NCBI RefSeq assembly: GCF_009735685.1
Contig: NZ_WHPN01000351.1
Coordinates: 25,749-89,748, forward strand
DNA from: Streptomyces lycii
GTDB lineage: Bacteria > Actinomycetota > Actinomycetes > Streptomycetales > Streptomycetaceae
Length of the DNA: 64,000 nt
Direction: 5' to 3'
The notes under the pieces were generated by a model, which made no database searches, was not told the origin of the DNA, and worked only from the letters and a program-made list of their open reading frames with translations. A program made the translations under genes and the position numbers. Below are positions 40,229-64,000 of this stretch, in pieces (position 1 is the first letter of the stretch; the number at the start of each line of letters is the position of its first letter).

Positions 40229-40231
40229 GGC

Positions 40232-40516
40232 TCAGGCGCCCATCTCGCCGAGCAGGAAATCGGCGAGCGTGCGCACCGATTCGAAGTGGCTCATCTCCAG
40301 GTTGTCGGTGTCCAGCTCGATGGAGAACGCCTCCTCCAGCGCCATCAGGAGTTCGAACACCCCGCTGGAGTCGAGGCCGACCTGGTCGAAGAGGCGGGAG
40401 TCCTCGGTGAGGTCGGGCAGGTCGTGGCCCAGCACCTCGGCCAGCGCGGAGGCGATGGTCTCCACGGCCTTGGTCCGGTCGACAGCGGTCGCTGTGGAGG
40501 CGGCGGCGTCAGTCAT
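40232..40516 (-). CDS. Discrete acyl carrier protein, BtrI-like
   Basis: 94 residues from the ATG at 40516. The carrier site is Ser50 in QVGLDSSGVFELL. It follows the decarboxylase gene by 30 bp in the same operon. In butirosin synthesis, BtrI carries gamma-glutamyl and then 4-aminobutyryl as a thioester. The combination here of ACP, ATP-grasp ligase and PLP decarboxylase suggests the same role (inference from context). It is distinct from the polyketide ACP at 26432. Confidence 0.88.
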   Translation of the reverse strand: MTDAAASTATAVDRTKAVETIASALAEVLGHDLPDLTEDSRLFDQVGLDSSGVFELLMALEEAFSIELDTDNLEMSHFESVRTLADFLLGEMGA

Positions 40517-40546
40517 GGCGTGACAGTCCTTTCGGAGAGCGTCGGT

Positions 40547-41845
40547 TCAGTGGCCCGTGGCGGTACGGGAGAGCACGTCGGCCGCGGGGAGGTGCTGCTT
40601 GCGGAGCAGGTCGTCGGGACGGTCCCGGTCGCGGACCAGGTGCGCCTCGCCGTCCAGGACGAGCGCCTCGGCCGGGTGGCCGTGGCTGAGGAAGAGGACC
40701 GGGGAGGCGCTGGGCCCGTAGGCGCCGGACCGTTCCACGCCGATCAGGTCGCCCGGCCGGACGTCCGGCAGCGGGACCTTCTTGCCCAGGGTGTCGTTCG
40801 GGGTGCAGAGCGGGCCGGTGAGGTTCCACGGGCCGGTGGCGGGCTCGTCGGTCCGGTTGAGCACCGTCATGGGGAAGTTGCGCTTGACGAACGACCCGAT
40901 GCCGACGGCGGCCATGTGGTGGTTGGTGCCGCCGTCGAGCACGGCGAAGTTCTCGCCCATGGACGTCTTCACATAGCGCACCGTGGTGACGTAGAGGCCG
41001 AACGGTGCCGTGAGATAGCGGCCCAGCTCCATCACCAGCCGGGTGTCCGGGTGGCGCGAGGCGAACTTGTCGATCACCGGGTTGAGCTGCGAGGCCAGCA
41101 GGTCGAAGTCCAGATCGGTCTCGTTGTCGAAGTACGCCACACCGAGGCCGCCGCCGATGTCGACCATCTCCAGCGGGAAGTCCAGCGCGTCCGCGACCTG
41201 CTCCGCGAGGTCGAAGATCCGCTCGGTGTTCTCCACCACGGCGTCCTCGCTGAGGATCCGGGTGCCCATGTAGACCTGCACGCCCATCAGCCGTACGTGG
41301 CTCAGCGCCGACACCGCCTCCGGCGCCGCGCCGAGCAGCTGCGCGGCGTCGATGCCGAACTGCCGCGGCTTGCCGCCCATCGTGAGGCCGGAACCCTTGA
41401 CGGCGAACTCGGGGTTCACGCGCAGCGCCACGCGTGCCGTCACCGAGCGGTCCCGCGCCAGCTCGTCGATGAGCGCCAGCTCTCCGAAGGACTCGCAGAT
41501 GATCGCGTAGACGCCCTCGTCGAGGCAGGCGGCCAGCTCCGCGCGGCTCTTGCCGGGGCCGAGGAAGAGGATGTCGGCCGGGTCGACGCCGGCGCGCCGC
41601 GCGGTGGCCAGCTCGGCCAGCGAGGAGATCTCCGCGCGGGCGCCGTGGGCGTGCAGCAGGCCGCAGACGGCGATGTTGGGGTTCGACTTGAGGGAGAAGA
41701 AGACCTCCAGGCGGGGGTGCAGCCGGTCCCGGACCGTCGTGATCCGGTCCCGCAGCCCGTTGCCGTCGTAGAGGTACAGCGGGGTGCCGTACCGCTCCGC
41801 CAGCTCCGTGACCCCGATTCCCTGCACCGTGCGTTCAGCGGGCAT
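40547..41845 (-). CDS. PLP-dependent decarboxylase, BtrK/LysA fold
   Basis: 432 residues from the ATG at 41845, with strong ribosome site ggaagga inside the upstream gene. The fold III (alanine-racemase-like) PLP motifs are FFSLKSNPN with the PLP-Lys, DIGGGLGVAYFD for phosphate binding, GPLCTPNDTLG with the active Cys, and GAYG near the C-terminus. The HIGS motif of diaminopimelate decarboxylase is replaced (VQVYMGTRI), which fits members that act on carrier-bound substrates such as BtrK, the L-glutamyl-ACP decarboxylase. The predicted product is 4-aminobutyryl-ACP; another amino acid cannot be excluded. Confidence 0.85.
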   Translation of the reverse strand: MPAERTVQGIGVTELAERYGTPLYLYDGNGLRDRITTVRDRLHPRLEVFFSLKSNPNIAVCGLLHAHGARAEISSLAELATARRAGVDPADILFLGPGKSRAELAACLDEGVYAIICESFGELALIDELARDRSVTARVALRVNPEFAVKGSGLTMGGKPRQFGIDAAQLLGAAPEAVSALSHVRLMGVQVYMGTRILSEDAVVENTERIFDLAEQVADALDFPLEMVDIGGGLGVAYFDNETDLDFDLLASQLNPVIDKFASRHPDTRLVMELGRYLTAPFGLYVTTVRYVKTSMGENFAVLDGGTNHHMAAVGIGSFVKRNFPMTVLNRTDEPATGPWNLTGPLCTPNDTLGKKVPLPDVRPGDLIGVERSGAYGPSASPVLFLSHGHPAEALVLDGEAHLVRDRDRPDDLLRKQHLPAADVLSRTATGH

Positions 41846-43220
41846 GACTCACTCCTTCCGCCACCAGCCGGGCGGTGATGTCCTCATCGAGGGCGGTCAG
41901 CTCGGCGGCCGAAGCGGCCACCACGATTCCGTAGAGACGGCCGTCGTACGCCTCGTCCGGGCGGACCCGGCCTCCGGCGTTGACGGTCGCGAAGTTGTTG
42001 ACGAGCAGGCCGGACCCGCCGGGCGCGGTCAGCAGCGCGTCGCCGAGGATCCGGCGGAAGCCGGCGAAGTCCAGCTCCCGTTCCAGGCGGACCGGGTAGT
42101 GGCGGGCCAGCGCCGTCATGCCGGGGCCCACGAACTGCTCCTGGAGGCGCACCTGGTAGGTCGACATGTTGTTGCGGGCGTTGATCTCCAGGACCGGCCA
42201 CACCCCGTCGGCCTCGTCCAGCAGCGCGTCCACGCCGACGACGCCCGCGTAGCCGTCCGCGGCCAGCCGCTTGCCCAGCAGCTCGGCGGCGGACCGGACC
42301 GCGGCGAGCCGGGACGGCCCGAGCGCGGCCGGGATCCGGTGGCCCTTGTGCACGCCGCCCTCGGTCACGGCGCGCTTGACGAAGTCGAAGTGCACCGCAC
42401 CGTCGTGGCCGACGGTGAACTGGTAGTTCAGATCGCCCTGGTGCGGGACCCACTCCTCGACGGTGAACGCGATGCGGTCCTCCCCGGAGCGGGCCACCTT
42501 CTGCCCGACCATCCGGTGCACCCGGTCCATCCAGCGCTCGTTCTCCAGCACCACGATGCCCTTGCCGGACACACCGAAGGCCTCCTTGACGACCGTACGG
42601 CGGCCCTGCGCGAGCAGCTTCCTGGCGTGGCCGAGCGCTTCGCCCAGCTCGTCGACGGTCTCGCACACCCAGCCCGCGGGCTGGCGCAGTCCCAGCTCGT
42701 CGGCGACCCGGCGGCTGTAGATCTTGCTGTTGACGCTTTTGCAGAGGTCGGCCGGGGAGCCCGCGATCTCCATTCCGGTGCGCCGGCACAGCTCTTCCTC
42801 CAGCACCGACACCCCGTGCGGGAACAGCCGGCAGCCCTGCCCGGCGAGTCCGGTGAGCACGGCCGGCAGTGCGGGGTCGCGCAGGATGTCCTCGGTGACG
42901 TTGCGCTGCGCGTCCTGCTCGGCGACGACATGGACGGTCGGCAGGGCCAGCCCGAGTTCGCGCAGATACGCGAGGTACGCCTCGTCGGGCGCGGTCTTGA
43001 GCACCACGTGGTCGCCCTCGCCCGCCAGCAGCAGGGCGAACTCGTCCATGCGGTTCACCACGGCGCTGCCCGACGCCGCGGAGAAGCGGGGCAGGGTGTG
43101 CTCGCCCTGCGCCCACACCTCCTCGACCTCGAAGTTCCCGAGGAACACGAGTGGCGCGCCGGCCGCTCCGGCCACGGCGCTCTTGAGCCGGCCGGTGAAG
43201 CCGGGCAGGAATTCGTCCAT
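41835..43220 (-). CDS. ATP-grasp amino acid-ACP ligase, BtrJ-like
   Basis: 461 residues from the ATG at 43220, which has gggagaa at the right distance; an ATG at 43238 has a weaker site. The ATP-grasp core shows TVVKEAFGVSGKGIVVL (nucleotide loop) and VWPVLEINARNNMSTYQ (Mg-binding Glu/Asn). In butirosin synthesis BtrJ joins glutamate to the BtrI ACP as a thioester. It overlaps the decarboxylase gene by 11 bp, as expected for a coupled pair. The amino acid substrate is not proven by sequence. Confidence 0.82.
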   Translation of the reverse strand: MDEFLPGFTGRLKSAVAGAAGAPLVFLGNFEVEEVWAQGEHTLPRFSAASGSAVVNRMDEFALLLAGEGDHVVLKTAPDEAYLAYLRELGLALPTVHVVAEQDAQRNVTEDILRDPALPAVLTGLAGQGCRLFPHGVSVLEEELCRRTGMEIAGSPADLCKSVNSKIYSRRVADELGLRQPAGWVCETVDELGEALGHARKLLAQGRRTVVKEAFGVSGKGIVVLENERWMDRVHRMVGQKVARSGEDRIAFTVEEWVPHQGDLNYQFTVGHDGAVHFDFVKRAVTEGGVHKGHRIPAALGPSRLAAVRSAAELLGKRLAADGYAGVVGVDALLDEADGVWPVLEINARNNMSTYQVRLQEQFVGPGMTALARHYPVRLERELDFAGFRRILGDALLTAPGGSGLLVNNFATVNAGGRVRPDEAYDGRLYGIVVAASAAELTALDEDITARLVAEGVSHAR

Positions 43221-43284
43221 GTCTTCTCCCACGTCCATGTCCGGTTGCGGCGGGCCGGGCTCTCTGCTTGCCGTCAGTGGCTCG

Positions 43285-44214
43285 TCAGTGCTGGAGGACC
43301 ATCGCGGCGAAGGACTGGCCGAGGCCCGCCGAGGTCATCAGGTAGTGGTCGCCCGGGTTGATCAGGCCCAGCTCGCGCACGGACTGGTAGTTGATGTAGG
43401 GGTCGGCGCAGAAGGAGTGCCCCGTGGCCCCGATGTTGCCGAGATAGATCTTGTCGGCGGGGATGCCCAGGTTCTTCGCGGCGACGGTCCAGGAGACCCG
43501 GTTGACGTTGTGCGGCAGGACCAGGTCGAGGTCGGCGACGGTGATCCCGGCCTCCTCGGTGGCCGCCAGCACCACTTCCTCCAGGGCGTCCTGGTAGATC
43601 CGTACGGCTTCCTTCGCGAGGTCGCCGACCAGGTCGATCAGGCCGTCCTCACGGCCGCGGATGCGGGCCGCGTAGCCGAGCATCCGGTCCCGGCCGCCGC
43701 CCGGGCCCACCAGGACCGCGGCGGTGGCCTCGCCCATGATCGAGACATCGGCGACCCACTGCGAGAAGGGCGTCAGCGTCTTGTCGCCGGCCAGGATCAG
43801 CGCGAGCGCGTCGGGGTCGCCGTCAGCCTCCAGCAGCATCCCGGCGACGTCGAACGCGAGCAGCCCGGTCGCGCAGCCGTGGTCCGAGACCGCGAAGGTC
43901 GTGGCGTTGCGCAGGCCCAGCGCGTCGCACACGTCGCGCAGCGGGTTGTTGGGGTACGGGGCCGTGGTCCGCAGGCCCTTGGCCCGGACCACATAGCGCA
44001 CCCGGTCCTCCTGGCCGGCCAGTCCGTCGAGCTTGCCGGCCGCGGCCAGCAGCAGCTCGCTCTCGGAGCGGTCCGGTGCCTGGCAGATCCGGTCCAGCCC
44101 GTACAGCCGGGTGAACCTGCGCACCTGCTGGTCGTTGAGTCCCAGGGGTTCCTTGAGGGCGTCCACCGGCACCGTGTCCGGCAGATGACTCGACACTGCC
44201 ACCAATGAGGTCAT
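43285..44214 (-). CDS. KAS III-type condensing enzyme (starter unit)
   Basis: 309 residues from the ATG at 44214. The catalytic set is complete: Cys114 in SDHGCATGLL, His in LPHNVNRVS and Asn in LGNIGATGHS. It is a FabH-like enzyme and likely makes the first C-C bond between the aminobutyryl-ACP starter and malonyl-ACP; an acyltransferase role as in CerJ-type proteins is an alternative. It is the first gene of the minus-strand operon. The -10-like TAGCGT lies 7 bp before the ATG, so the mRNA is probably leaderless. Confidence 0.82.
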   Translation of the reverse strand: MTSLVAVSSHLPDTVPVDALKEPLGLNDQQVRRFTRLYGLDRICQAPDRSESELLLAAAGKLDGLAGQEDRVRYVVRAKGLRTTAPYPNNPLRDVCDALGLRNATTFAVSDHGCATGLLAFDVAGMLLEADGDPDALALILAGDKTLTPFSQWVADVSIMGEATAAVLVGPGGGRDRMLGYAARIRGREDGLIDLVGDLAKEAVRIYQDALEEVVLAATEEAGITVADLDLVLPHNVNRVSWTVAAKNLGIPADKIYLGNIGATGHSFCADPYINYQSVRELGLINPGDHYLMTSAGLGQSFAAMVLQH

Positions 44215-44221
44215 GCGACGG

Positions 44222-44263
44222 ACGCTAGGCAGCACGGCTGACGCCCGGCTGACGCGACGCTGA
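44222..44263 (-). promoter_or_regulatory. SARP operator and -10 of the aminobutyryl-ACP operon
   Basis: Read on the minus strand, heptads TCAGCGT (44263-44257), TCAGCCG (44252-44246) and TCAGCCG (44241-44235) are 11 bp apart. After 7 bp comes TAGCGT (44227-44222). The start codon is at 44214, so a leaderless transcript is expected. Confidence 0.82.
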
Positions 44264-44359
44264 CCGTGGCCGGGCCCCGGCCCGGCGGGTGCCCGCCCGG
44301 GTCTCCGCGGCGTGCCGGCGCCGCGGCGCCGCGGGGATCCGGACGACACCCCCCCCAGG

Positions 44360-44401
44360 TCAGTTCGCCGTCAGCGGGGCGTCAGTGCCGCCCCGGAGCA
44401 T
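44360..44401 (+). promoter_or_regulatory. SARP operator and -10 of the NRPS operon
   Basis: Heptads TCAGTTC (44360), TCAGCGG (44371) and TCAGTGC (44382) lie 11 bp apart, followed after 7 bp by GAGCAT (44396-44401). It is divergent from the array at 44235-44263; the two arrays are 97 bp apart and control opposite operons. Confidence 0.82.
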
Positions 44402-44441
44402 GAGCCGTGTCCGGAACGGCTTGCCAGGGAGCGTGGAAGAG

Positions 44442-45527
44442 ATGCCGGTGTCACAGTCGGAGGAGAGCGGACCCGAGGCGCTGCCCGCCTTCGCGGTGGT
44501 TCCCGGAGCACAGGTGAACGCCGTGCTCCAGGGACGTGAGAAGCATGTCATCGACGTCGTGGAGGCGGCCTACCGGCTGCACGGCGCCGGGAGCACCGTG
44601 AACCCGCCCTCGTACTTCCTGCGCTTCCCGGACCGGCCGGACGCGCGGATCATCGCGCTGCCCGCCTCGCTCGGCGGGGAGTCGCCCGTCGACGGGCTGA
44701 AGTGGATTTCCAGCTTTCCCGGCAACATCACCTCGGGGCTGCCCCGCGCGTCGGCGGTGCTGATCCTCAACGACCCGGCCACCGGCTATCCGTTCGCGTG
44801 CCTGGAGTCGTCGGTCATCAGCGCGGCCCGCACCGCCGGTTCGGCGGCGCTCGCGGCCCAGGTGCTCGGCCGGGAGCGGGGCACACGGCCCCGCAGGGCC
44901 GGCTTCGTCGGCACCGGGCTCATCGCCCGCTTCGTGCACACCTATCTCGCGGCCGCCGGTTTCGAGTTCGACGAGATCGGGCTGCACGACCTCGACGCGG
45001 GGCACGCCGGACGGTTCGAAGGCTATCTCCAAGAGAGCGGGCACGGCGGCCGGACCGTGGTGCACAGCCGCGCGGAGGACCTGATCCGCTCCAGCGATCT
45101 GGTGGTGTTCGCGACCGTCGCCGGGGAGCCGCACGTCAGCGACCCCGCGTGGTTCGAGCACGCGCCGCTGGTGCTGAACCTGTCGCTGCGCGACCTGTCG
45201 CCGGAGGTCGTCCTGTCGGCCGTCAACGTGGTCGACGACGTGGAGCACTGCCTCAAGGCCAACACCTCGGTGCACCTGACCGAACAGTTCACCGGCAACC
45301 GGGACTTCCTGGCCGGGACCCTGTACGACGTGCTGACCGGGAAGCTGCGCCCGGAGAGCGGCAGCCCGCTGGTGTTCTCCCCGTTCGGGCTCGGGGTCCT
45401 CGACCTCGCCGTCGGTTCGTACGTGTACGACGAGATCGCCCGTGCCGGCGAACTGCACGCCGTCAACGGATTCTTCGATGAGCTCGACCGCTATGGGAAG
45501 AGCCGAGCCGCGGCCCGTCGGCCGTAG
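44442..45527 (+). CDS. SbnB-like dehydrogenase (2,3-diaminopropionate synthesis)
   Basis: 361 residues from the ATG at 44442; an in-frame ATG at 44400 overlaps the -10 and is unlikely. It belongs to the ornithine cyclodeaminase/mu-crystallin family. [16 protein letters not shown] is the NAD-binding Rossmann loop, and [11 protein letters not shown] and [10 protein letters not shown] are family landmarks. SbnB oxidatively cleaves N-(2-amino-2-carboxyethyl)-L-glutamate, releasing L-2,3-diaminopropionate. The SbnA-like gene follows directly, which supports this rather than ornithine metabolism. First gene of the NRPS operon. Confidence 0.9.
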
Positions 45528-45541
45528 GTGGGAGTCGTCCT

Positions 45542-46540
45542 GTGCCAGTCATATCCACTCCGCAGGAATTCAACGTCGACGACCTCTACGTCGACCTCCG
45601 GTGGATTTTCGGTCGCCATCTCTTTCTCAAGTGCGAGGGATTCAACTTCGCCGGATCCATCAAACTCAAGGCCGCCGCCGAGATGATCGCCATGGCCGAG
45701 CGCAGCGGAGAGCTGCAGCCCGGGGACATGCTCGTGGAGAGCAGTTCCGGGAACATGGGCGTGGCGATCAGCCTGCTGGCCAGCAGCAAGGGCTACCGCT
45801 TCACCTGTGTGACGGACTCCCGCTGCACGCTGGGCGCCCGGCAGCTGATGGAGGCCCTCGGCACCGAGGTGCACCTCATCGACCAGCCGCATCCGCAGGA
45901 CGGCCTGCTCGGCGCGCGCATCGCGCACGTCAAGAAACTCTGCACCGAGAACCGCAGCTATGTGTGGCTGAACCAGTATTTCAACGCCGGGAACTGGCTG
46001 GCCCATTTCCACACCACCGGGCCGGAGCTGCTGAAGATATTTCCCGAGGTCGACGTCGTCTTCGTCGGCGCGGGCACGACCGGCACCCTGATGGGCTGCG
46101 CGCGCTATCTGCGCCAGGCCAAGCCCTCGGTGCGGATCGTGGCCGTCGACACGGTCGGCTCGGTCACCTTCGGCACCCCGCCCGGGCCGCGTTCGATCCC
46201 GGGACTCGGCACCAGCGTCCGGCCGCACCTGCTCGACGAGTCCTTCGTGGACGACGTCGTCCACGTCTCCGAGGCCGACACCCTGCGCGCCTGCCGCCGG
46301 ATGGCCGACCACGGCTTCCTCTTCGGCGGCTCCACCGGAACGGTCGTCAGCGGCGCGCTGGGCTGGCTGGCGGAGAACCCGGCCACCGACGAACTCACCG
46401 CGGTGACGATCGCGCCGGACCTCGGCGGCCGCTATCTGGACACGATCTACAACGACGAGTGGGTCGAGCAGGTCTACGGGGCGGGCGCGCTGGAGCCGCC
46501 TGCCGCCGGCGCGGGCCTACTGACCAGGGGGATCCAATGA
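45542..46540 (+). CDS. SbnA-like PLP synthase (2,3-diaminopropionate synthesis)
   Basis: 332 residues from the GTG at 45542. It has the cysteine-synthase fold II: PLP-Lys41 in [20 protein letters not shown] for the substrate carboxylate, and [11 protein letters not shown] for the PLP phosphate. SbnA joins O-phospho-L-serine and glutamate to N-(2-amino-2-carboxyethyl)-L-glutamate. With SbnB it supplies L-2,3-diaminopropionate, which fits the predicted specificity of the first NRPS adenylation domain. The stop overlaps the NRPS start (ATGA). Confidence 0.9.
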
Positions 46541-49500
46541 CCGACACCGCCGGCCGCACCGAGGACCTCGCGCTGACCGCGGGGCAGGCCGACATCTGGT
46601 TCGACGAGAAGCTCTCCGGGGCCGGTTACGCGTACAACACGGCCGGCTACCTCGACATCGACGGCCCGCTGGACCCGGAGCTGTTCCGTGCGGCCGCCCG
46701 GCAGCTCGTCGACGAGGCCGAGTGCACCCGCTCCCGGTTCGTGGAGACCGGCGGGGTGCCGCGGCAGCGGGTGGAGCCGCTGGCGGAGCTGCCGTACACC
46801 GTGCTCGACCTCGCCGGGGAGGCGGACCCGCTCGCGGCCGCGCGGGCCTGGATGCGGGCGGACCTCGACACCCCCTTCACGCTCGACGACTTCCCGCTGT
46901 TCCGGCTCGCGCTGATCAGGACCGGCGAGAACCGTTCGCTGTTCTACATGTGCATCCACCACTTCCTGTGCGACGGCTACAGCCAGGTCGTGTTCTGGCG
47001 CCGGCTGGCGGAGATCTACGCCGCCCTGGCCGACGGCCGGGACACCGGCCGCGGCGCGCTGCCGCCGCTCGCCGACCTGATCGCCGCCGAGCAGCGTTAC
47101 GACAGCTCCGGCCCGGCCGCCCGGGACGCCGCCTTCTGGGCGGGCCGCTTCCCGCAGGCCCCGGAGCTGGTCACCCTGTCCGCGCACGAGGACGCGGAGC
47201 CGGTCTCCGGCTTCGTACGGGACGAGTTCACCCTCGGCAAGGAGATCACCGGCGCCCTGCGCGAGCTGGCGACGCGGACCTCGGTGACCTGGCCGACCGT
47301 GATGATGGCCGCCGTCGCCGCCTACACCCAGCGCCGTACCGGCCGGCCGGACGTGCTGCTGACGGTGCCCGTCACCACCCGGGTCGGCGCCCGGATGCGG
47401 GCCGTTCCCGGCATGGTCGCCAACACCCTGCCGCTGCACGTCCAGGCCGGGCCCGCGACCACCCGCGCGGAACTGCTGAAGAACACCTCCCGGGAGTTCA
47501 CCCGGATCCTCAAGCACCAGCGGCACCGGGTCAGCAAGGTCCGCCAGGCCATGGGCCTGCGCAGCGACGACCGGCGCCCGTTCGGCCCGCTGGTCAACAT
47601 CCTCCCGCAGGAGACCCGGCTGAGCCTGGGCCCGTGCGAGCTGACCGTCAACAACCTCTCCACCGGGCTCATCGACGACTTCGAGATCACCGTGGTGGAC
47701 GCGGCCGACGGCGGATCGACGGTGCACCTGAGCGGCAACGCCGGCCTGTACACCCGGGAGGAGCTGGCCGGGCACACCGCCGGGCTCGCCCACTTCCTGC
47801 GGTCCTTCGTGGCCGCGGACGACGACACCCCGCTGGGCCGGCTGGCCACCCTGGACGGGAAGGCCGTCGCGGAGCTGCTGCGCACCGGCACCGGCCCGGT
47901 GGACACCCGCCCCTTCGAGGGCGTCGTGGAGCGGGTGCGCCGGACCGCCGACACCTTCCCCGACGGCGTGGCCGTCGTCGAGGACGGCGGCTCGCTGTCC
48001 TACTCGGCCCTGGTGGCCCGCGCCAGCGCCCTCTCCCGCAGGCTGGACACCGCTCCCACCGCGGTGCTCGCGGCGCCCGGCGCCGGTTTCGTCACCGCCG
48101 TGCTGGGCGCGCTCAACGCGGGCGGTTCCTATGTGCCGCTGGACACCGGCGCCCCCAGGACCCGGCTGGTCTCGCTGCTCCGGGACAGCGGCGCGGCGAC
48201 CCTGGTCACCGACGCCGCGCACCGGGAGCTGGCGGACGACATCGCCGACCGGGCCGGCACCGCTCCCCGGGTGGTGGAGCTGGACGGTGCCGAGGACCCG
48301 GCCGGCGAACTCGTCCCGCCCCGCGGCTGCGACGACGACCTGGCCTACACGATCTTCACCTCCGGCTCCACCGGCCGCCCCAAGGGCGCCATGGTGCACC
48401 GGGCCGGGATGGCCAACCACCTGCTGGCCAAGGTCGAGGACCTCGACCTGTGCGAGGGCGACACCCTGGTCCAGAACGCCCCCGTGACCTTCGACATCTC
48501 CGTCTGGCAGATGCTCGCGCCGCTGCTCACCGGCGGCCGGGTGCGCGTCGTCGACCGGGCCACCGCGGCCGACCCCGAGCTGCTGTTCCCCCTCACCGCG
48601 CGCGAGCAGGTGACGGTGTTGGAGGTCGTGCCCTCGCTGCTGCGGGCCGCGCTCGACTCCTGGGACGAGACCGGGGAGAGCCCCGAGCTGCCCTCGCTGC
48701 GCCGGCTCGTGGTGACCGGTGAGGTGCTGCCGGCGGACCTGTGCGCCCGCTGGACGGCCCGCTTCCCCGGCATCCCGATGGTCAACGCGTACGGGCCGAC
48801 CGAGTGCTCGGACGACGTCACGCACGCCGTCATCACGGCGGACGAGCTGCCCAGGGGCCGGGCGAGCGCCCCGATCGGCCGCGCGGTGCGCAACACCCGG
48901 CTGTTCGTCCTCGGTGACGAACTCCAGCCGGTGCCCGCCGGCACCCCCGGCGAGCTGTACGTGGCCGGCGAGGGCGTGGGCCGCGGCTATCTGGGCGATC
49001 CGGGGCGCACCGCCTCGGTGTTCGTGCCCGACCCGTACGGCCCTCCGGGGACCCGCATGTACCGCACCGGGGACCGGGTGGTGCTCCGTCCCGACGGGCA
49101 GTTCGAGTTCCTGGAGCGCCGCGACCACCAGGTCAAGGTGCGCGGTCACCGGATCGAGCTGGGCGAGATCGAGTCGGCCCTGCGCGAGCTGCCGCAGCTC
49201 GCGGACGCTGCCGTCGCCGTCCACACGGACCCGGCGGGAGGCAAGCGGCTCACCGGCTATCTGGTGGCCCGCGGCGGCGAGCCCGGCGACGGCGGCGGCA
49301 TCGTCGCTGCCGTCCGCGAGCTGCTGGCCGCCCGGCTGCCCGACTACATGGTGCCGTCCGCGTTTTTGACCCTGCCCGCGCTGCCGCTCACCCCGCACGG
49401 CAAGGTGGACCGCAAGGCGCTGCCCGAGCCGGAGTTCACCTCCGCCGCGGGCGCCGGCCGCGGCGCCGCCCCCGGCACGAGCAGCCCGGGCGAGGACATC

Positions 49501-52500
49501 CTCACCGCCGTGATGGCGGACGTGCTGGGCCGTGCCGCCGTCGCCCCCGGCGACAACTTCTTCGAGCTGGGCGGCGACAGCATCAGCGCCATCCAGGTCG
49601 TCAGCCGGGCCCGCCGGGCCGGTCTGACGGTCAGCGCGCGCCAGATCTTCGAGCACCGCACCCCGGCCGCCGTCGCGGCGGTCGCCGGACCCGTACGGGA
49701 ACGGCGGACCGCCGTGCCCGACGACGGGGTCGGCGAGACGGAGCTGCTGCCCGTCGCCCACCAACTGCGGGAGGACCTGGAGGAGCTGGACGCGCCGGTC
49801 CGGGAGTACAGCCAGTACGTGGCCGTCGAGGTGCCGGCCGGGGCCGGGGCGGACGCTCTCACCACCGCGTTCCAGGCGCTGCTGGACCACCACGACGCGC
49901 TGCGGCTGCGGCTCGCCGTCCCCGTCCCGGGCCTGTGGACCCTGGAGGTCCGGCCGGCCGGCGCCGTACGGGCCGCCGACGTGCTGAGCCGGGTCGCCGC
50001 CGACGACCGGCCGCTCGCCGAGCAGACGGCCGAGCAGGTCGCCGCCGCCCGCGCGCTGCTCGACCCCGAGCAGGGCACCGTGGTCCGCGCCGTGCTGCTG
50101 GACCGCGGCGCGGACCGGCCCGGCCGGCTGGTCGTGGTGGCCCACCACCTGGCCGTGGACGGTGTCTCCTGGCGCATCCTGGTGCCGGACCTGCGGTCCG
50201 CGTACGAGGCCGCGGCGGCGGGCCGCACCCCCGTACTGGAGCCGGTGCCCACCTCACTGCGCCGCTGGTCGCGCGAGCTGTCCGAGCACGCCCGGGCCAC
50301 CCGCCGGGTCAGCGAACTGCCGCTGTGGCGCCGCCAGCTCACCGGCGACGACCCGGCGCTGGGCAGCCGCCCGCTGGACCGCGCCAAGGACGTCCGCGCG
50401 ACCGCCCGCAGGCTGCGCGCCGAGCTGCCCGCCGAACAGACGGCGGAGCTGCTGAACTCGGTGCCCGCGGCCCTGCACGCGGAGATCAACGACGTGCTGC
50501 TGACCGCGCTGGCCCTGGCCGGCGCCGACTGGCGCAGACGGCGTGGCGGGAGCGGCTCCGAGCTGCTGGTGGAGATCGAGGGGCACGGCCGCGAGGAGTT
50601 CGCGGAGGAACTCGACGTCTCCCGCACGGTCGGCTGGTTCACCACCTCCTTCCCCGCCCGGCTCGCGCCCGGCGACGTCGACTGGTCCACGGTGTGGTCC
50701 GGCGGCCCGGCCGCGGGAGCCGCGCTCAAGCGGGTCAAGGAGCAGCTGCGCGGGCTGCCCGACCACGGACTGGGATTCGGGCTGCTGCGCCATCTCAACC
50801 CGCAGACGCAGGCCGTGCTCGGGCGGCTCGCCCCGCCGCAGATCGGCTTCAACTACCTCGGCCGGTTCGGCGGCCCGGCGGCGGACGGCAGCTGGTCGCT
50901 GGACGGTGCCGACGCCGTGGTGGGCCTCGGCGCGCACCCGGACACACCGCTGCGCCACGTCGTCGAGCTGTCCTCCGTCGCCGAGGAGCGGGACGGCGGC
51001 CCGGTGCTGGTCGCCGAGTGGGCCTGGGCCGGTGAACTGCTGGCCGAGGCGGACGTCGACGAGCTGGCGCAGGGCTGGTTCCGGGCGCTGCGGGCGCTGA
51101 TCGCCCATGCCCGTACGCCGGACGCGGGCGGCCGGACGCCCGCCGACTTCCCGCTGGTGTCGCTGTCCCAGCAGGAGGTCGAGGAGTTCGAGCGGGAGCT
51201 GGGGCCGCTGTCGGACGTGCTGCCCGCCTCACCGCTCCAGCAGGGGCTGGTGTTCTCGGCGGAGTACGACACCGAGGGCCTGGACCCGTACACCCTGCAG
51301 ATCGGGGTGGACGCCGAGGGCCCGCTGGACCCGGCGCGGCTGCGCGCCGCGGCGCAGGCCCTGCTGCGCCGGCACGCCAACCTCCGCGCCTGCTTCCCGG
51401 CGCGGCCGGACGGCGGCGACCCGGTGCAGGCGGTGCCCGCCGAGGCCGCCGTCGGCTGGCGGGAGACCGATCTGAGCGGTCTGCCGGAGCAGGAGCGGGA
51501 GGCGGAGCTGGCCCGGCTGACGGAGGCCGAGTGGCGCGCCCGGTTCGACATCCACCGCTCGCCGATGGTCCGGTTCACCGTGGTCCGCACCGGCGAGGAG
51601 CGGCACCGGCTGCTGTGGTCGGTGCACCACGCGCTGGTCGACGGCTGGTCGATGGCGATCTTCGCCCAGGAGCTGTTCACCCTCTACGCGCAGGGCCCGG
51701 ACACCGCGTCGCTGCCGGACGCCGTGCCGTACCGCTCGTATGTGAGCTGGCTGGCCGAACGCGACCCGGAGGAGGCCCGCGCGGCCTGGAAGTCCGTGCT
51801 GGACGGCATCGAGGAGCCGACCCGGCTCGTCCAGTCGGCACGGGCCGCCGGCCCGGCGGGCCTGCCCGGGGAACTGCTGCGGGAGGTGGACGAGGACCTG
51901 TCCGCCGCGCTGGCCGACTGGGCCCGCGCCCGCGGCCTCACCGTCAACACGGTGTTCCAGGGCGTCTGGGCGGTGCTGCTGAGCAGGCTGACGGGGCGCC
52001 ACGACGTGGTGTTCGGCGCGGTCGGCTCCGGCCGGCCCGCCGATCTGCCCGGAGTGGAGTCGATCGTCGGCTCCTTCCTGAACACCCTGCCGGTACGGGT
52101 CCGGCCGGCCCCCGGCCGCACCCTTCCCGAAGTGCTCGCCGAACTCCAGGAACAGCAGTTCGCGATGGCCGAGCACCAGCACCTGGGGCTCGCCGAGGTG
52201 CAGCGGATCGCCGGGACGGGCGACCTCTTCGACACGGTGATCAGCTACAACAACTACCCGATGGCCGACGTCTCCAGCCTGGACGGGGTGGTGCCGGAGC
52301 TGCGCTTCGGCGCGAGCCACGCCAAGGTCGTCGCCGAGTACCCGTTCGCGCTGTCCGTCTACCCCGGCCCCCGGCTGCAACTGCACGTCCAGTACGCCCC
52401 GGACGTCCTGCCCCGCGAGGAGGCGGAGTCCGTCACCGGCCGCTTCCTGCGGCTGCTGCGCACCGTGGTCGAACAGCCCGACGTTCCGCTCGGGCGCCTG

Positions 52501-55500
52501 GACGTGCTGGAGGACGCCGAGCGGCGCACCCTCCTGGAGGACTGGGCGGGCCACGCGGAAGCGGGCGCCGGTGCCCCGGTCACGGAGCTGTTCGAGGGCT
52601 GGGCGGCCCGTACGCCCGGCGCGCCCGCGGTGGTCTTCGACGGCGCGGAAATCCCGTACGGCGAGATCAACAGCCGTGCCAACCGGCTGGCGCGGCTGCT
52701 CACCGGCCGCGGGGTCGGCCCCGAGGACCTGGTCGCGCTCGCGCTGCCGCGGACGCCCGACATGGTCGTCGCCGCGCTCGCGGTGCTGAAGGCCGGCGCG
52801 GCCTATCTGCCGATCGACGCCGGCTATCCCGCCGACCGCATCCGCTACATGCTGGCCGACGCCCGGCCGGTGGCGCTGCTCACGGCGGCGGAGCTGGCGC
52901 TGGACCTCAGCGTGCCGGACGAGGTCCCGGTGCTGGTGATCGACGGGGACGCCGTGTCGGCGGACCTCGCCGGGCTGCCGGACGCGGACCTCGCCGACGC
53001 GGACCGCCGGGAACCGCTCCGCCCGCAGCACGCCGCCTACACCATCTACACCTCCGGCTCCACGGGGAAGCCCAAGGGCGTCGTGGTGGACCACTCCGGT
53101 TTCGCCGCGATGGTCGAGTCGCTGACCGAGCGGTTCGGTCTCGATCCCTCGGTGCGGGTGCTCCAGTTCGCGTCCTTCAGCTTCGACGCCTCCGCGTGGG
53201 AACTGGGCCTGGCGCTGTTCAACGGCGGCGCGCTGGTCATCGCCGACGACGAGTGCCGCGACCCGGGCCGGCCGCTGGTCGACCTGATCAACGACTCCGG
53301 GGTGACCCTCGCCGGGCTGCCGCCGGTCGTCGCGGGCGCGCTGCCGGACGACGCCCGGCTGCCCGAAGGGCTGACCATGGCCGTCGCGGGCGAGGCCTGC
53401 CCGCCGGAGGTGATGGCCCGCTGGGCGCCGCGGGTGCGGATGTTCAACGGCTACGGCCCCACCGAGGCGGTCGTCGCCTCGACCGTGGGCGGTCCGCTCT
53501 CCGGCACCGACCGGCCGCCCATCGGCCGGCCGACGACGGCCCACCGGGTGTACGTCCTCGACCGCGACCTGCGTCCCGCGCTGCCGGGCGTCACCGGCGA
53601 GCTGTACGTCGCCGGGGGCCTCGCCCGCGGCTACGCCGGCCGCCCCGGACTGACCGCGCAGCGCTTCCTGGCGGACCCCTACGGCCCGCCCGGCACCCGG
53701 ATGTACCGCACCGGCGACCTGGTGCGCTGGCTGCCCGACGGCCAGCTGGACTACGTCGGCCGCAGCGACGACCAGGTGCAGCTGCGAGGCTTCCGCATCG
53801 AACTCGGCGAGATCGAGTCGGTGATCGCCGCCCACCCGGGCGTGGCCACCGCGGTGGTCACCGTCCGCGGGGACGGCTCCGGCGACAAGCGCCTGGTCGG
53901 GTACATCGTGCCGGACGCCTCCGGCACCGCCGACGCACCGGCGCTGACGGCGGCCGTGCGCGAGCGGGTCGCGGACGCGCTGCCCCAGCACATGGTGCCG
54001 TCCGGCTTCGTGGTGCTGGACGCCCTGCCGCTCACCCCGCAGGGCAAGGTCGACCGCAAGGCGCTGCCCGCCCCGGACCACACGGACCGGGACGCCGGCC
54101 GGGGCCCGCGGACCCCGGTGGAGGAGATCATCTGCGGGCTGTTCGCCGATGTGCTGGGGCTGGAGCGGATCGGTGTCGACGAGGACTTCTTCGCCGCCGG
54201 CGGGCACTCGCTGCTCGCCACCCGGGCGGTCGGCCGGGCCCGTTCCCTGCTGGGCGTCGAACTGCCGATCCGCACCCTCTTCGAAGCCCGCACGGCCGCG
54301 GGCCTCGCCGAGCGGGTCGCCGGTGCCGCGCAGGCCCGTCCGGCGCCGAAGCTGGCACCGCGCACGGACCGCCCGCCCGCCGAAGGGGACGGCAGCGCGC
54401 CGCTCTCCCACGCCCAGCGGCGCCTGTGGTTCGCGGGCCGGCTCGAACAGGGCGGCCGGGGCAGCTACAACGTGCCCTTCGCCGTCCGCCTCACCGGCCG
54501 GCTCGACGTGCAGGCCCTCCAGTCGGCGCTGAACGACCTCGCCGGCCGCCACGAGGTGCTGCGCGCGGTGTTCCCGGCCGGTGACGACGAGCCGTACCAG
54601 CAGGTGCTGGACGCCCCCGCGGGCGATCCCGTGCTGCTGGCCCGGCGGGTCACCGAGGAGGAGCTGCCGCAGGCCCTGGCGGTGGAGGCCGAGACGGGCT
54701 TCGACCTGACGGCCGTACCGCCGCTGCGGGCCCGGCTGTTCACGCTCGCCGAGTCCGACGAGACGTACGTGCTGCTGCTGGTGTTCCACCACATCGCCTT
54801 CGACGGCTGGTCCATCGCGCCGCTGCTGGCGGACCTCACCCGCGCCTACCGGGCCCGGGCCGCCGGAGCGGAGCCGCAGTGGCAGCCGCTGCCGGTGAGC
54901 TACGCCGACTACGCGGCCTGGCAGCGGGACCTGCTGGGCTCCCCCGAGGACCCGGACTCCCTGCTGTCCCGTCAGCTGGAGCACTGGACCCGGGCACTGG
55001 CCGGGCTCCCCGAGGAGCTGCGGCTGCCCCGGGACTACGCCCGGCCGGCGGTCGCCAGCCACAGCGGCGGCGGCGTGGAGTTCCTGCTCGGCCCGGAGCT
55101 GTACGCCGAACTGAACGCCATCGCCCGGCAGTCCGGCGCGACGCTGTTCATGGTCCTCCAGGCGGCCTTCGCGGCCCTGCTGACCAAGACAGGCGCCGGC
55201 ACGGACATCCCGGTGGGCAGCCCGGTCGCGGGCCGTACCGACGAGGGCCTGTCCGATCTCATCGGCACCTTCGTCAACACCCTGGTGCTGCGCACCGACA
55301 CCTCCGGCGACCCGACCTTCCAGGAGCTGCTGGCCCGGGTGCGGGAGGTGAACCTCTCCGCGTACTCCCACCAGGAGCTGCCGTTCGACCGCATCGTGGA
55401 CGCGCTCAACCCGGAACGCTCGCTGGCCCGGCACCCGCTGTTCCAGGTGATGCTCGTGCTCCAGAACACCGATGACGGCGCCCCGCCGGTGCTGCCCGGC

Positions 55501-57984
55501 CTGGAGCTGAGCGGCCAGCCGGTGCCCCAGCGGATGACCAAGTTCGACCTGCGGCTGCAGTTCGACGAGCCGCACGGCCCGGAGCACGGGCTGCGCGGGG
55601 TGCTGGAGTACGCCACCGATCTCTTCAAGCGCTCGACGGCCGAGGGCCTGGTGGAGCGTCTGCAGCGGCTGCTGCGGGCGGTCGCCGCCGATCCCGGAGC
55701 ACGGCTGTCGGCCATCGACCTCCTCGACGGAAAGGAACGGCAGCGCGTGCTGACCGACTGGAACGACACGGACCACGAGACGGTGACCGCCACCCTGCCG
55801 GAGCAGTTCGAGGCCGCCGTACGGCGCACCCCCGACGCCCCGGCCCTGGTGGCCGGCGACACCGCACTCAGCTACCGGGAACTGGACGCGCGGGCCAACC
55901 GGCTGGCGCACCACCTGCTCGCCCAGGGCGCCGGGCCCGAGCGGATCGTCGGCATCGCCCTGCCGCGCTCCCCCGAACTCGTCGCGGCGGTGCTCGCCGT
56001 GCTGAAGTCCGGCGCCGCCTACACCCTGTTCGACGCCGCGCTGCCCGCCGGCCGCATCGAGGCGCTGGCCGGCCAGGCCCGCCCGGTGTGCATCCTCACC
56101 ACCGCCGGCTCGGCCGGCCGGATGCCGCCGGGGTACGCCCGGGTCGTCGTCGGCTCGGCGGCGCTGGACGCCTCCCTCGCGGAGCTGCCGGACACCGCCC
56201 CGGAGCCCCGGTGGAGCGGCGGCCCGGCCGCGGCCGCGTGCGTCGTCTACACCTCCGACGCCGACGGCAGGCTGCTGGGCACCGTCGTGGAACACCGCGC
56301 ACTGGCCGGCCACACCGCCTGGGCGGCGGAGCGGGAGCCCGGCTCCGACGCCGTCCTGCCCGCCCCGCTCGGCTACGAGAACGCGATCGGCTCGCTGTAC
56401 GCGCCGCTGGTCTCCGGCGGCACCGTACGGCTGGACGCACCGGCCGGCGACCGTTCCGGCCCGTCCGGCACGGCCTGGACCGTGGAGCCCGACGACCGGG
56501 TGCCCGCCGGGATCCTCGACGGCGGCCGGCCCGCCGGGCACACCCGGGCGTACGTCCTGGACGAGCGGCTGGCCCCGGTCGCGCCCGGAGCCATCGGCGA
56601 GCTGCACCTCGCGGGCGGCCGGCTGGCGCGCGGCTATCTGCACCGGCCGGGCCTGACCGCGGAGTTCTTCGTCGCCGACCCGTTCGGCCCGGAGGGCTCC
56701 CGGATGTTCCGCACCGGCGAGCTGGTCCGCTGGGCCGAGGACGGCACGCTGCTGCCGGCCGAACCCACCGCCCTGCGCCCCGAGGAGGACACGGCCGGCC
56801 CGGCGGAGGCCGGCACGGCGTCCGGGCCCGCGGAGTCCGCGCCCGCCGGCGGCCCCCGCACCCGGCGGGAGGAGGTCCTGCTGGGCGTGCTCACCGAGGT
56901 CCTGGGCCGGGACGGGATCACCGTCGACGACAACTTCTTCACCATCGGCATGGACTCCATCCGCTCCATGCAGGTCGTCGCCAAGGCCCGCGCCGCCGGC
57001 ACCCAGCTGGAGATCGCGGACGTGTTCGCGCACCAGACGGTCGCGGCCCTGGCGGCCGAGGCCGACCGCCGGGAGGGCCCGGTCCGCCAGGACCCGCCGC
57101 GCGGCTCCGTCATCGACGAGGTCTTCGCGCAGCTCGGCTCGCCCGAGGAGAACGACCCGTTCGGCACCGTCGTCCAGCTCAAGCAGGGCGGCTCCCGGCC
57201 GCCGCTGTTCTGCCTGCACAGCGGCGTGGGCTTCGCCCTTCCCTACGTCGGTCTCGCCCGCCACATCGGCGACGAGCACCCCATCTACGGCATCCAGGCG
57301 CCCAGCATCAGCGAACTCGCCCCGCTGCCGGGCACCGTGCGGGAGATGGCCGCGGAGTACGCGGAGCTGATCCGCAAGGTCAGCCCGCAGGGCCCGTACC
57401 ACCTGCTGGGCTGGTCCTTCGGCGGCTCACTGGCCTACGAGATCGCCGCCCGGCTCCAGGAGGGCGGCGACGAGGTCGGCCTGCTGGCGAACCTCGACTC
57501 CTATCCGCGCACCGCGGACGAGGAGGTCGGCGACGACCAGTCGCTGCTCGGCTGGGTGGTGGAGCTGGTCGGGCACGACAAGTCCGAGTTCGCCGGGCGC
57601 GAGCTGACCCCCGCCGACGTCGTCGACGTCCTGCGGCGCGGCAACAGCCCGCTGGCCGGACTCGGCGAGCAGCGGGTGCTGGCGATGCTGGAGACGATGC
57701 GCAACAACGCCCGGCTGATGAGCGAGCACGACCCGGGCGCCTTCAGCGGGCGGATGCAGCTCTTCGTGGCCTCGGCCAACGCCTCCGACGCGGAGGTCGC
57801 GGAGCGCGCCGCGCAGTGGGAGCGGCATGTGGACGGGACCGTGGTCGTCCACCAGGTGCCGTGCAGCCACGACTACATGATGCACCCGGACCCGCTGGCG
57901 CTGGTCGGCGCGGCCGTCGCGGCCGAGCTCCAGCGGCTGCACATGGCCGCCGCGCAGAGCACCCGTACGGGCGGCACCACATGA
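46537..57984 (+). CDS. Three-module NRPS: C-A-T-E-C-A-T-C-A(degenerate)-T-TE
   Basis: 3815 residues from the ATG at 46537. C1 (~13-450; HHFLCDG at 141) should accept an acyl chain. A1 (~460-968; P-loop FTSGSTG at 607) reads a pocket of about D-I-W-E-V-T-A-D-D-K, like 2,4-diaminobutyrate codes, so diaminopropionate is likely. T1 has Ser1015. The epimerase (~1067-1527; HHLAVDG at 1203, EGHGRE, NYLGRF) makes the D-isomer. C2 (~1545-2000; HHALVDG at 1697). A2 (~2015-2518; YTSGSTG at 2171) has a pocket of about D-A-W-G-A-A-G-V-A-K, small residues suiting a bulky aromatic. T2 has Ser2558. C3 (~2622-3075; HHIAFDG at 2751). A3 (~3085-3409) is only ~325 residues, with [11 protein letters not shown] instead of the P-loop and no A4-A5 or A10 regions. 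T3 has Ser3474. TE (~3540-3815) has Ser3627 in GWSFGG and His in CSHDYMMHP. Confidence 0.95.
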
Positions 57985-59185: not shown

Positions 59186-59407
59186 GTGAGCAACCCCTTC
59201 GACGATGAGAACGGCTTCTTCCTGGTCGTGGTGAACCGGGAGGGCCAGCACAGCATCTGGCCCTCGTTCGCCGCCGTGCCCGACGGCTGGACGGTCGCCC
59301 AGGAGGCCGGCACGCGGGAGGCCGCGGTGGCCTACGTGGAGAACAACTGGACCGATCTGCGCCCGCTGAGCCTGCGCGAGCAGAGCACCGCCGACCAGGG
59401 CCGCTGA
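59186..59407 (+). CDS. MbtH-like protein
   Basis: 73 residues from the GTG at 59186. It contains the family core NREGQHSIWPSFAAVPDGW and WTDLRPLS, with the conserved Trp residues that bind adenylation domains. MbtH-like proteins aid folding and activity of NRPS A domains; A1 and A2 of the NRPS are the likely clients. It lies 4 bp before the ABC ATPase gene. Confidence 0.95.
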   Translation: MSNPFDDENGFFLVVVNREGQHSIWPSFAAVPDGWTVAQEAGTREAAVAYVENNWTDLRPLSLREQSTADQGR

Positions 59408-61930: not shown

Positions 61931-63204
61931 CACACACCACTTTCTGTGGGTACGGGCACCCGCCGTGGGGCCGGTGCCGCTGTGCGGTCCAGGAGCATCA
62001 GGAGCGGTCCGGTCATCACCGTCGTGGTCACCGCCATGACGATCAGAGCCAGGACCAGTGCCTCGGTCAGCAGCCCGGCACTCAGCCCGGCCTGCAGCAC
62101 GATGAGTTCGGTCAGTCCCCGGCTGTTCATCAGCACGCCGATCTGGCGCGACTCGAAGGAGGAACAGCCGCCGAGCCGTGCCCCGAGGTATCCGCCGACG
62201 CCCTTGCCCAGACAGCCGAGCACCACCGCCGCGACGATCAGCGGCCAGGGCACCGAGGTGAGCGACTCGTCGAGCACCGTGATGCCGGTGACCACGAAGA
62301 ACGCCGGCGCCAGCGCCCGCCCCGCCCGGCCCACCGAAGCGGCGGCACCGGCCCAGGGGGCCGGCTTGTCGCGCGGGATCGCGAAGCCGACCATGGCCGC
62401 GCCCAGCACGGCGGTCATGCCGAGGTGTTCCATGCCGAAGGAGACCAGCAGGGCCACCGCGGCCAGCAGCAGCGCCGCGGTCCGCGGCAGCCGGGCCGGC
62501 AGCCGCCGGCCCGCCCGGGTGCGCATGGCGTACCGCACCGTCAGGGCGCCCGCCGCGCCCAGCGCCAGGGCCGCCGCCGCACGGAGGGCTCCGGCCGCGT
62601 CACCGGCGCCGAGGCCGAGTGCCACGGTCAGGCCCAGCCAGCCGAGGGCGTCGATCGTGATGGCCGAGCCGAGCGCGAGCCCGCCCGCCGCCGTCCCGCT
62701 CATGCCGCGGTCGGTGAGGATCCGCGCGAGCACCGGCACCGCGGTGATCGACATCGCCACCGCCAGCATCAGGCAGAAGGCCGGCAGCGGAGCGGTGCCG
62801 CGCACCGCGGGGTCTCCCCTCGCGATGATCCAGCCGGCCAGCAGCAGCCCGGTCAGCAGCGGCAGCACGAAGGACCCCGCACTGATCCAGGCCGTGGCCC
62901 GGCGGGCCGACCGCCCGCCGTTGTCGCCGTGGTGCAGCGAGTGGGCGAGGCCGACGAGGAAGAGCACCAGACCGGCCTCGGCGATCACGCCGAGGCCGTC
63001 CAGCACCCGTTCGGGCAGCAGCAGCGTGAACCAGTCACGTCCCGCCAGGGCGATCGCGGCGGGGCCGGCGAGCAGCCCCACCACGATCTCCCCGATCACC
63101 TCGGGCTGCCGCAGCAGCCGGGCGGTCAGCCGGCCGAGCACCGCGGTGGCGAGCACCACCGCGAGCGCTGCGGCCACATGCAGGACGTACACCGTCAGTG
63201 CCAC
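61930..63204 (-). CDS. Cation:proton antiporter, CPA2 family
   Basis: 424 residues from the GTG at 63204, overlapping the halogenase stop by 10 bp. About 12 membrane segments are present. VIGEIVVGLLAGPAAIAL, AVAMSITAVPVLARILTDRG and LMNSRGLTELIVL are CPA2 landmarks. There is no KTN/TrkA-N domain. Antiporters of this type occur in several antibiotic clusters, probably for export or pH balance. A direct role in product export is inferred from its place between halogenase and flavin reductase. Confidence 0.9.
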   Translation of the reverse strand: MALTVYVLHVAAALAVVLATAVLGRLTARLLRQPEVIGEIVVGLLAGPAAIALAGRDWFTLLLPERVLDGLGVIAEAGLVLFLVGLAHSLHHGDNGGRSARRATAWISAGSFVLPLLTGLLLAGWIIARGDPAVRGTAPLPAFCLMLAVAMSITAVPVLARILTDRGMSGTAAGGLALGSAITIDALGWLGLTVALGLGAGDAAGALRAAAALALGAAGALTVRYAMRTRAGRRLPARLPRTAALLLAAVALLVSFGMEHLGMTAVLGAAMVGFAIPRDKPAPWAGAAASVGRAGRALAPAFFVVTGITVLDESLTSVPWPLIVAAVVLGCLGKGVGGYLGARLGGCSSFESRQIGVLMNSRGLTELIVLQAGLSAGLLTEALVLALIVMAVTTTVMTGPLLMLLDRTAAPAPRRVPVPTESGV

Positions 63205-64000
63205 TGGGAGAAGTAGTCGTACGCCTTCGGCAGGGTCTCCGTGAGCTGCCGGGTCTTCTCCCGGATGTCGGCGAACTCACGCTGCGCGGCGGCGCTGTCG
63301 GTGAGCGCCAGGCCGGGCGACGGCTTCACGTCGATGCCGCCCATGCCGAGCAGCACGCACATGTAGGAGTACGCCGGCAGCCCGTGGTAGTACGGGAAGA
63401 TGGTCTCGCTGTCCGGCAGCTGGGTCTTCCACTTCTCCAGCCGCTCGGCGAGCCCGTCCGGGACGGCGCGGGTCTTCGTGTCCTTCCAGTATTGGTTGTC
63501 CTGTCGCTTGGCCGCCACATAATGCAGCACCAGGAATTCACGTACGCCGTCCATGACATGGGAAACGGCGTCGTTGTAGCGATTCCGGTAAGTGGCGTCC
63601 CAGTCGGGTCCCGGGAAATTCTTGACGAGCTGCTCGATGGCGTGGTGAATGAAGAAAATACCGGTGGATTCAAGCGGCTCGACGAATCCGCTCGCCAGGC
63701 CGATTCCGACGCAGTTCTTCACCCAGGAGTTCCGGCTGCGGCCGATGCGCATCTTGATGTGGTTGGCCTCGACGTCCGCCGCGGCGGGGCCGACGAACTC
63801 GCGCAGGGTGCGCTCCGCCTCGTCCGGGGACAGGTAGTCCTTGGCGTAGACGTATCCGGTGCCGACCCGGCCCATGAGCGGGATCGTCCAGATCCAGCCC
63901 GCGTCCTGGGCGGTGGCGGTGGTGCAGGGCCGGATGCCGCGCTTCTCCATGTCCATCGGCACCTGGAGGGCGACGGCGCTGTCGTTGGGCAGGGTGTCCT
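63195..64000 (-). CDS. Flavin-dependent tryptophan halogenase (partial, N-terminus outside window)
   Basis: The last 267 residues and the stop are in the window; the frame is open to the edge, so the gene starts beyond 64000. AGWIWTIPLMGRVGTGYVYA contains the halogenase WxWxIP motif. LASGFVEPLESTGIFFIHH is the second diagnostic segment. DVEANHIKMRIGRSRNSW, HVMDGVREFLVLHY and NQYWKDTKTRAVP match tryptophan 5-/6-halogenases such as PyrH. The N-terminal GxGxxG and catalytic Lys cannot be seen. It likely chlorinates tryptophan or a tryptophan-like residue. It is the distal part of a minus-strand operon with the antiporter and flavin reductase. Confidence 0.93.
   Translation of the reverse strand, partial: DTLPNDSAVALQVPMDMEKRGIRPCTTATAQDAGWIWTIPLMGRVGTGYVYAKDYLSPDEAERTLREFVGPAAADVEANHIKMRIGRSRNSWVKNCVGIGLASGFVEPLESTGIFFIHHAIEQLVKNFPGPDWDATYRNRYNDAVSHVMDGVREFLVLHYVAAKRQDNQYWKDTKTRAVPDGLAERLEKWKTQLPDSETIFPYYHGLPAYSYMCVLLGMGGIDVKPSPGLALTDSAAAQREFADIREKTRQLTETLPKAYDYFSQWH

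What the first reader, a model, noticed from the sequence alone, without database searches (positions are those of the whole stretch)
55791..56760. Third NRPS adenylation domain is a degenerate shell
A3 spans only ~325 residues. Its P-loop reads [11 protein letters not shown], the A4-A5 specificity region is deleted and the A10 Lys region is missing, while the flanking C3 (HHIAFDG), T3 (Ser3474) and TE (Ser3627) look intact. So T3 must be loaded in trans, take a unit from a discrete carrier (for example the BtrI-like ACP), or be skipped, with C3 acting otherwise. The reading frame stays open, so this is not random decay of the whole gene.
Basis: partly seen in the sequence, partly recalled or inferred. 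Interest (0 to 1): 0.78.

Follow-up and report, generated by a model that had tools for sequence, protein, structure and literature searches.

The report
Dead NRPS domain replaced in trans
The third amino-acid-loading domain of this Streptomyces peptide factory really is a broken stump, and in eight of ten related gene clusters with the same defect a separate stand-alone loading enzyme of one conserved family sits nearby, so evolution seems to have outsourced the step and then let the built-in part wither away.

Summary
The NRPS (window 46537-57984, C-A-T-E-C-A-T-C-A3*-T-TE) has a ~330-residue third A domain: P-loop [12 protein letters not shown]4 decayed, 64 residues lost between A4 and a vestigial A5, A8-A10 gone. 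It is no assembly error: nine genomes carry homologous shells of one clade (322 down to ~190 residues), a tenth has lost A3 entirely (C-T-TE), and two related clusters (Actinokineospora, Saccharothrix) keep an intact last A. Just beyond the window (window-equivalent ~70398-71981) lies a complete stand-alone A domain with an Asp-type code (DLTKMGHIGK). Its orthologues (65-78%) sit in the same cluster of 8 of the 10 A3-defective assembly lines and are absent from the two intact ones. The other two carry a different free-standing A-T protein and an altered T3 motif. In clusters with the stand-alone A, T3 is the only NRPS carrier without a cis A. Most likely the stand-alone A charges T3 with Asp in trans. 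Trans-complementation of dead or missing A domains is known (albicidin, WS9326A, syringomycin); new here is the graded series of A-domain erosion. The BtrI-like ACP is not the general supplier. Biochemistry is untested.

The parts
46537..57984 (+). Trimodular NRPS, C1-A1-T1-E-C2-A2-T2-C3-A3*-T3-TE
   Evidence: Pfam hits, motif positions, domain table
54379..55776 (+). C3 condensation domain, HHIAFDG intact at 54787
   Evidence: (Condensation, best stretch)
55786..56781 (+). A3*: degenerate adenylation shell
   Evidence: PF00501 over residues 8-216 of the piece, profile positions 1-236; alignment with the intact Actinokineospora A3; AF2 model folds except at the scars
56248..56280 (+). Ruined A3 motif (P-loop) [11 protein letters not shown]
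   Evidence: [11 protein letters not shown] in orthologue G337
56371..56391 (+). Decayed A4 motif (GYENAIG; the specificity Asp is lost)
56448..56475 (+). Point of the 64-residue deletion and vestigial A5 (DRSGPSGTA)
56596..56733 (+). Retained A6-A7 (GELHLAGG ... [12 protein letters not shown])
56761..56841 (+). Linker that replaces A8-A10 and the C-terminal subdomain
   Evidence: low pLDDT in the model (residues 807-827)
56842..57054 (+). T3 carrier domain, active-site Ser in GMDSIRS (56947)
   Evidence: PF00550 E 8.9e-14
57094..57972 (+). TE domain, GWSFGGS at 57409
   Evidence: orthologues
59186..59407 (+). MbtH-like protein of the cluster (next to the stand-alone A gene in five relatives)
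   Evidence: PF03621; gene positions. The stand-alone A itself lies outside the window: G000:C117:96146-97729, - strand, window-equivalent 70398-71981
44289..45527 (+). SbnB-type 2,3-diaminopropionate biosynthesis gene
   Evidence: TIGR03944 above cut-off
45542..46540 (+). SbnA-type 2,3-diaminopropionate biosynthesis gene
   Evidence: TIGR03945 above cut-off

Best explanation
A3 is a vestigial adenylation domain that cannot make an aminoacyl adenylate. T3 is instead charged in trans, most likely with L-aspartate (or a hydroxylated form), by a stand-alone A domain encoded about 12.4 kb downstream of the NRPS gene, just outside the window. An ancestor of this Streptomyces cluster family recruited that free A domain; the built-in A3 was then free to decay in frame, giving the present series of shells and, in one lineage, complete loss. 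C3 joins the chain on T2 to the residue on T3, and TE releases the product. Shown here: the shell, its homologues, the intact relatives, the stand-alone A with complete core motifs, their co-distribution, and the shell and stand-alone-A clades. Inferred: the Asp substrate (from the specificity code), loading of T3, and the order of events.
For: Catalytic motifs lost in A3* and present in the stand-alone A. Stand-alone A orthologues at 65-78% identity in the same cluster of 8 of 10 A3-defective assembly lines and none (best about 43%, from ordinary NRPS) in the Actinokineospora and Saccharothrix genomes with intact last A. The code DLTKMGHIGK was extracted from the window strain, WAC05374 and S. 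cellulosae and the A4/A5 segments are nearly the same in the others; it matches the established Asp code DLTKVGHIGK. The intact A3 of Actinokineospora reads DLTKCGEVGK (Asn-like). Census of A and T domains: A1, A2 and the stand-alone A against T1, T2, T3. Trees: shells form one clade (98/94, 95), placed with Actinokineospora A3 at 90/73; stand-alone A forms a separate clade (100/100). G334 lacks A3 wholly but keeps T3, TE and the stand-alone A. The stand-alone A is under purifying selection (dN/dS 0.23).
Against: Two shell-bearing clusters (G309, G371) lack this stand-alone A and carry another free-standing A-T protein instead, so the link is not absolute. The clusters share ancestry, so 8 of 10 against 0 of 2 counts few independent events. 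A more distant stand-alone A (G191, about 50%) sits beside a discrete carrier and what look like glutamate-mutase genes (read by eye), so this enzyme family can serve other carriers. No activity, mass-spectrometry or product data; the product is unidentified. The sister relation of the shells to Actinokineospora A3 is only moderately supported and not resolved in the second tree.
Confidence: 0.77

Rival explanations
1. T3 is loaded across modules by the in-cis A1 or A2, as the SidD A1 domain loads T2 of a module with a truncated A domain.
For: Precedent in fungi (PMC10192304). A1 and A2 are intact in all lines examined.
Against: It leaves the conserved stand-alone A, the only A without a carrier, without a partner; A1 and A2 are kept equally in relatives with intact A3.
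Confidence: 0.07
2. The stand-alone A does not load T3: it makes an amide bond directly (PacU/ORF19-like) or charges another carrier, and module 3 is skipped or only its C3 and TE act.
For: Stand-alone A domains can form amides (PMC10192304). A relative in G191 sits next to a discrete carrier. In G309 and G371 the T3 motif has changed to SMTS and SLNS.
Against: T3 keeps MDS in all eight clusters that have this stand-alone A. Those clusters share no other free NRPS-type carrier.
Confidence: 0.1
3. T3 takes a 4-aminobutyryl unit from the BtrI-like ACP at 40232-40516.
For: ACP, ATP-grasp and PLP-decarboxylase genes lie next to the NRPS.
Against: These genes were not found in the other A3-defective clusters, whereas the defect is shared; the KAS III genes beside them suggest a role in the acyl part.
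Confidence: 0.04
4. The shell is a sequencing or assembly deletion.
For: Draft assembly of 430 contigs.
Against: Independent genomes carry homologous shells, the nearest with the same 322-residue length and different sequence.
Confidence: 0.01

Closest known systems
Albicidin and cystobactamid assembly lines (inactive cis A complemented by Alb04)
   Same: A non-functional A domain stays in the line and is thought to be complemented in trans by a stand-alone A-containing protein (PMC8949500)
   Different: Alb04 is an A-T protein with an inserted extra domain and prefers Asn; here a lone A domain with an Asp code, and the cis A is truncated, in one relative absent
WS9326A (Cal22Thr, Cal23Asn) in Streptomyces calvus
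   Same: Trans A domains of a Streptomyces cluster, MbtH-dependent, shown by knock-out and assays (PMC7539972)
   Different: A-PCP didomains; no decaying cis A series is described in the passages read
Syringomycin SyrB1/SyrE module 9
   Same: Terminal C-T-TE module whose residue is activated by a separate protein (PMC8949500), as in relative G334
   Different: SyrB1 has its own T domain and needs the shuttle SyrC; this stand-alone A has no T domain
SidD module 2 (fungal siderophore NRPS)
   Same: Truncated, inactive A domain beside a working T (PMC10192304)
   Different: Loaded by an A domain of the same protein, not by a stand-alone one

Membership tests
Functional NRPS adenylation domain (for A3*) | P-loop (A3 motif) TSGSTGxPKG | tested here: not met
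   [11 protein letters not shown]
Functional NRPS adenylation domain (for A3*) | A5 motif and A4-A5 specificity pocket | tested here: not met
   64 residues missing, A5 reduced to SGPSGT
Functional NRPS adenylation domain (for A3*) | C-terminal subdomain with A8 and the A10 Lys | tested here: not met
Trans-complemented A-defective module (albicidin, WS9326A kind) | Intact C, T and release domains around a defective or absent A | tested here: met
Trans-complemented A-defective module (albicidin, WS9326A kind) | Stand-alone A with complete core motifs in the same cluster | tested here: met
Trans-complemented A-defective module (albicidin, WS9326A kind) | Stand-alone A occurs where the cis A is defective and not where it is intact | tested here: met
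   8 of 10 against 0 of 2; the other two have a different A-T protein; shared ancestry limits the weight
Trans-complemented A-defective module (albicidin, WS9326A kind) | The stand-alone A activates the residue incorporated there and loads the T domain | not testable with these tools
   needs protein assays and the product structure
SyrB1/SyrC-type split module | Trans A carries its own T domain | tested here: not met
   527 residues, AMP-binding only; no T found in the frame; the A-T proteins of G309/G371 do have one

The most novel reading that the evidence does not exclude
Once the cis A domain is dead, module 3 becomes an open socket whose substrate is set by whichever stand-alone A-containing gene the cluster holds (Asp-type lone A in eight clusters, a different A-T protein in two). 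The residual shell, still under partial purifying selection and predicted to fold, would persist as a structural spacer or docking platform.
Probability: 0.28. Interest if true: 0.68.

Novelty: new member of a known kind. Interest (0 to 1): 0.52.

Why it matters
Modules without a working A domain are known, but how they arise is seldom seen. This family holds the stages side by side: intact A3, shells of decreasing size, and full loss, with a recruited stand-alone A domain in most of the defective lines. It gives a natural test set for how an NRPS tolerates loss of a domain, for what a trans A domain needs to find its carrier, and for changing a residue by exchanging a separate gene. It also warns that an annotated 'A domain' in such clusters should not be used to predict a residue.

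Tried and rejected
A genome-wide search for carrier domains gave too many hits; a local profile scan of the clusters replaced it. A first reading of the stand-alone A loci on the wrong strand was corrected. Searches for the product (chlorotryptophan, diaminopropionate, type II PKS) and for the strains found nothing relevant in the listed titles and abstracts, and the code strings were not found in the literature held, so the Asp assignment rests on the established code. The apparent stop in the G753 stand-alone A is its own terminal stop. Supply from the BtrI-like ACP and the assembly-error reading were rejected as above.

Full report
What was checked. The NRPS runs from 46537 to 57984 and reads C1-A1-T1-E-C2-A2-T2-C3-A3*-T3-TE. 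A3* occupies about 55786-56781.

What exactly is broken. Against the intact A3 of Actinokineospora bangkokensis (L018), the window protein has lost the P-loop residues, has a decayed A4, has lost 64 residues between A4 and A5, keeps a vestige of A5, keeps A6 and A7, and has lost A8-A10 with the C-terminal subdomain. Pfam AMP-binding matches profile positions 1-236 of 384 in its best stretch. An AlphaFold2 model of C3-A3*-T3 (mean pLDDT 87) folds the shell with good confidence except at the deletion scar (residues 693-714) and the linker (807-827); Foldseek aligns it with solved C-A structures over most of its length.

It is old and shared. A search of 296 Streptomyces genomes, a scan of bacterial and archaeal species genomes and TE-based searches found homologous lines. 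Shells occur in the window strain, G337, Streptomyces sp. WAC05374 (the same 288509-base contig as G252), S. cellulosae NRRL B-2687, G213, G199, G753, G309 and G371: 322, 322, 296, 278, at least 223, 192, 193, 296 and 299 residues (G213 is cut by its contig end). G334 has no A3 at all: C3 runs into T3. Actinokineospora and Saccharothrix sp. NRRL B-16348 have an intact last A domain. The shells form one clade (98/94), next to the Actinokineospora A3 in the first tree (90/73). Between the window and G337, dN/dS is 0.44 for the shell, 0.28 for A1+A2 and 0.31 for C3, and 0.23 for the stand-alone A: relaxed, not neutral.

The missing activity is next door. The contig beyond the window holds a stand-alone A domain (L014:16147-17730, - strand; window-equivalent 70398-71981) beside a phosphopantetheinyl transferase and a TauD-type dioxygenase. 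The core motifs looked for are there (P-loop, A5, A7, A8, A10 Lys). Orthologues lie in the clusters of WAC05374 and S. cellulosae and not in the genomes of Actinokineospora or Saccharothrix, where the best hits are ordinary NRPS A domains at about 43% or less. In 393 Streptomyces genomes the enzyme was found in eight: seven belong to this cluster family, and the eighth (G191, 50%) stands beside a discrete carrier and genes that look like glutamate mutase. G753 has it too. The code read in three of them is DLTKMGHIGK, matching the known Asp code; the Asp assignment is established knowledge, not measured here.

The exceptions. G309 and G371 have shells but not this enzyme. They carry instead a free-standing protein of 926-945 residues with A and T domains (Pfam), also beside a TauD-like gene, and their T3 motif has changed from MDS to MTS or LNS. 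Either another trans A serves the module or module 3 is failing there.

Accounting. A profile scan of the clusters finds, in those with the stand-alone A, three NRPS T domains (four in WAC05374, where T3 is duplicated) against A1, A2 and the stand-alone A. G213 and G337 are split over contigs and less complete. The BtrI-like ACP, ATP-grasp and PLP-decarboxylase were found only in the window's cluster, as far as the others were fetched.

Interpretation. The stand-alone A was probably recruited once, took over loading of T3, and the built-in A3 then eroded in frame. The open frame needs no function of the shell, since T3 and TE depend on it. Precedents for trans-complementation are albicidin, ramoplanin, enduracidin and syringomycin, SidD for cross-module loading past a truncated A, and WS9326A. 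The new part is the series of stages. Cluster content (SbnA/SbnB, Trp halogenase, trp genes in relatives, type II PKS-like genes) suggests an acylated peptide with diaminopropionate and perhaps a halogenated Trp; the product is unknown.

Noticed in passing
L012 (G252:C61), NRPS of WAC05374, about 80666-81121 of the contig: T3 is tandemly duplicated (228-base repeat, 221 of 228 identical), giving C-A*-T-T-TE.
   Followed up: partly
G309 cluster 45133-47910 (L180:5133-7910) and G371 cluster 46423-49257 (L183:6423-9257): Free-standing A-T proteins with a degenerate C-like N-terminus beside a TauD-like gene, in the two shell clusters that lack the Asp-type stand-alone A; T3 there has lost the Asp before its Ser.
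   Followed up: partly
G191:C16, about 161558-166500 (L149): A distant relative of the stand-alone A (50%) sits beside a discrete carrier protein and genes that look like the two subunits of glutamate mutase, as in 3-methylaspartate pathways.
   Followed up: no
39356-44349: Island of two KAS III-like genes, ACP, PLP decarboxylase and ATP-grasp; found only here, with one KAS III (86%) seen at the fetched edge of the G337 contig.
   Followed up: partly
63195-64000 and beyond (L014:8944-10494): Tryptophan-halogenase-family gene conserved at 82-88% in the Streptomyces clusters; trp biosynthesis genes lie at the edge of most of them.
   Followed up: partly
L014:15486-16142: Phosphopantetheinyl transferase gene next to the stand-alone A, seen only in the window strain and G337.
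   Followed up: no
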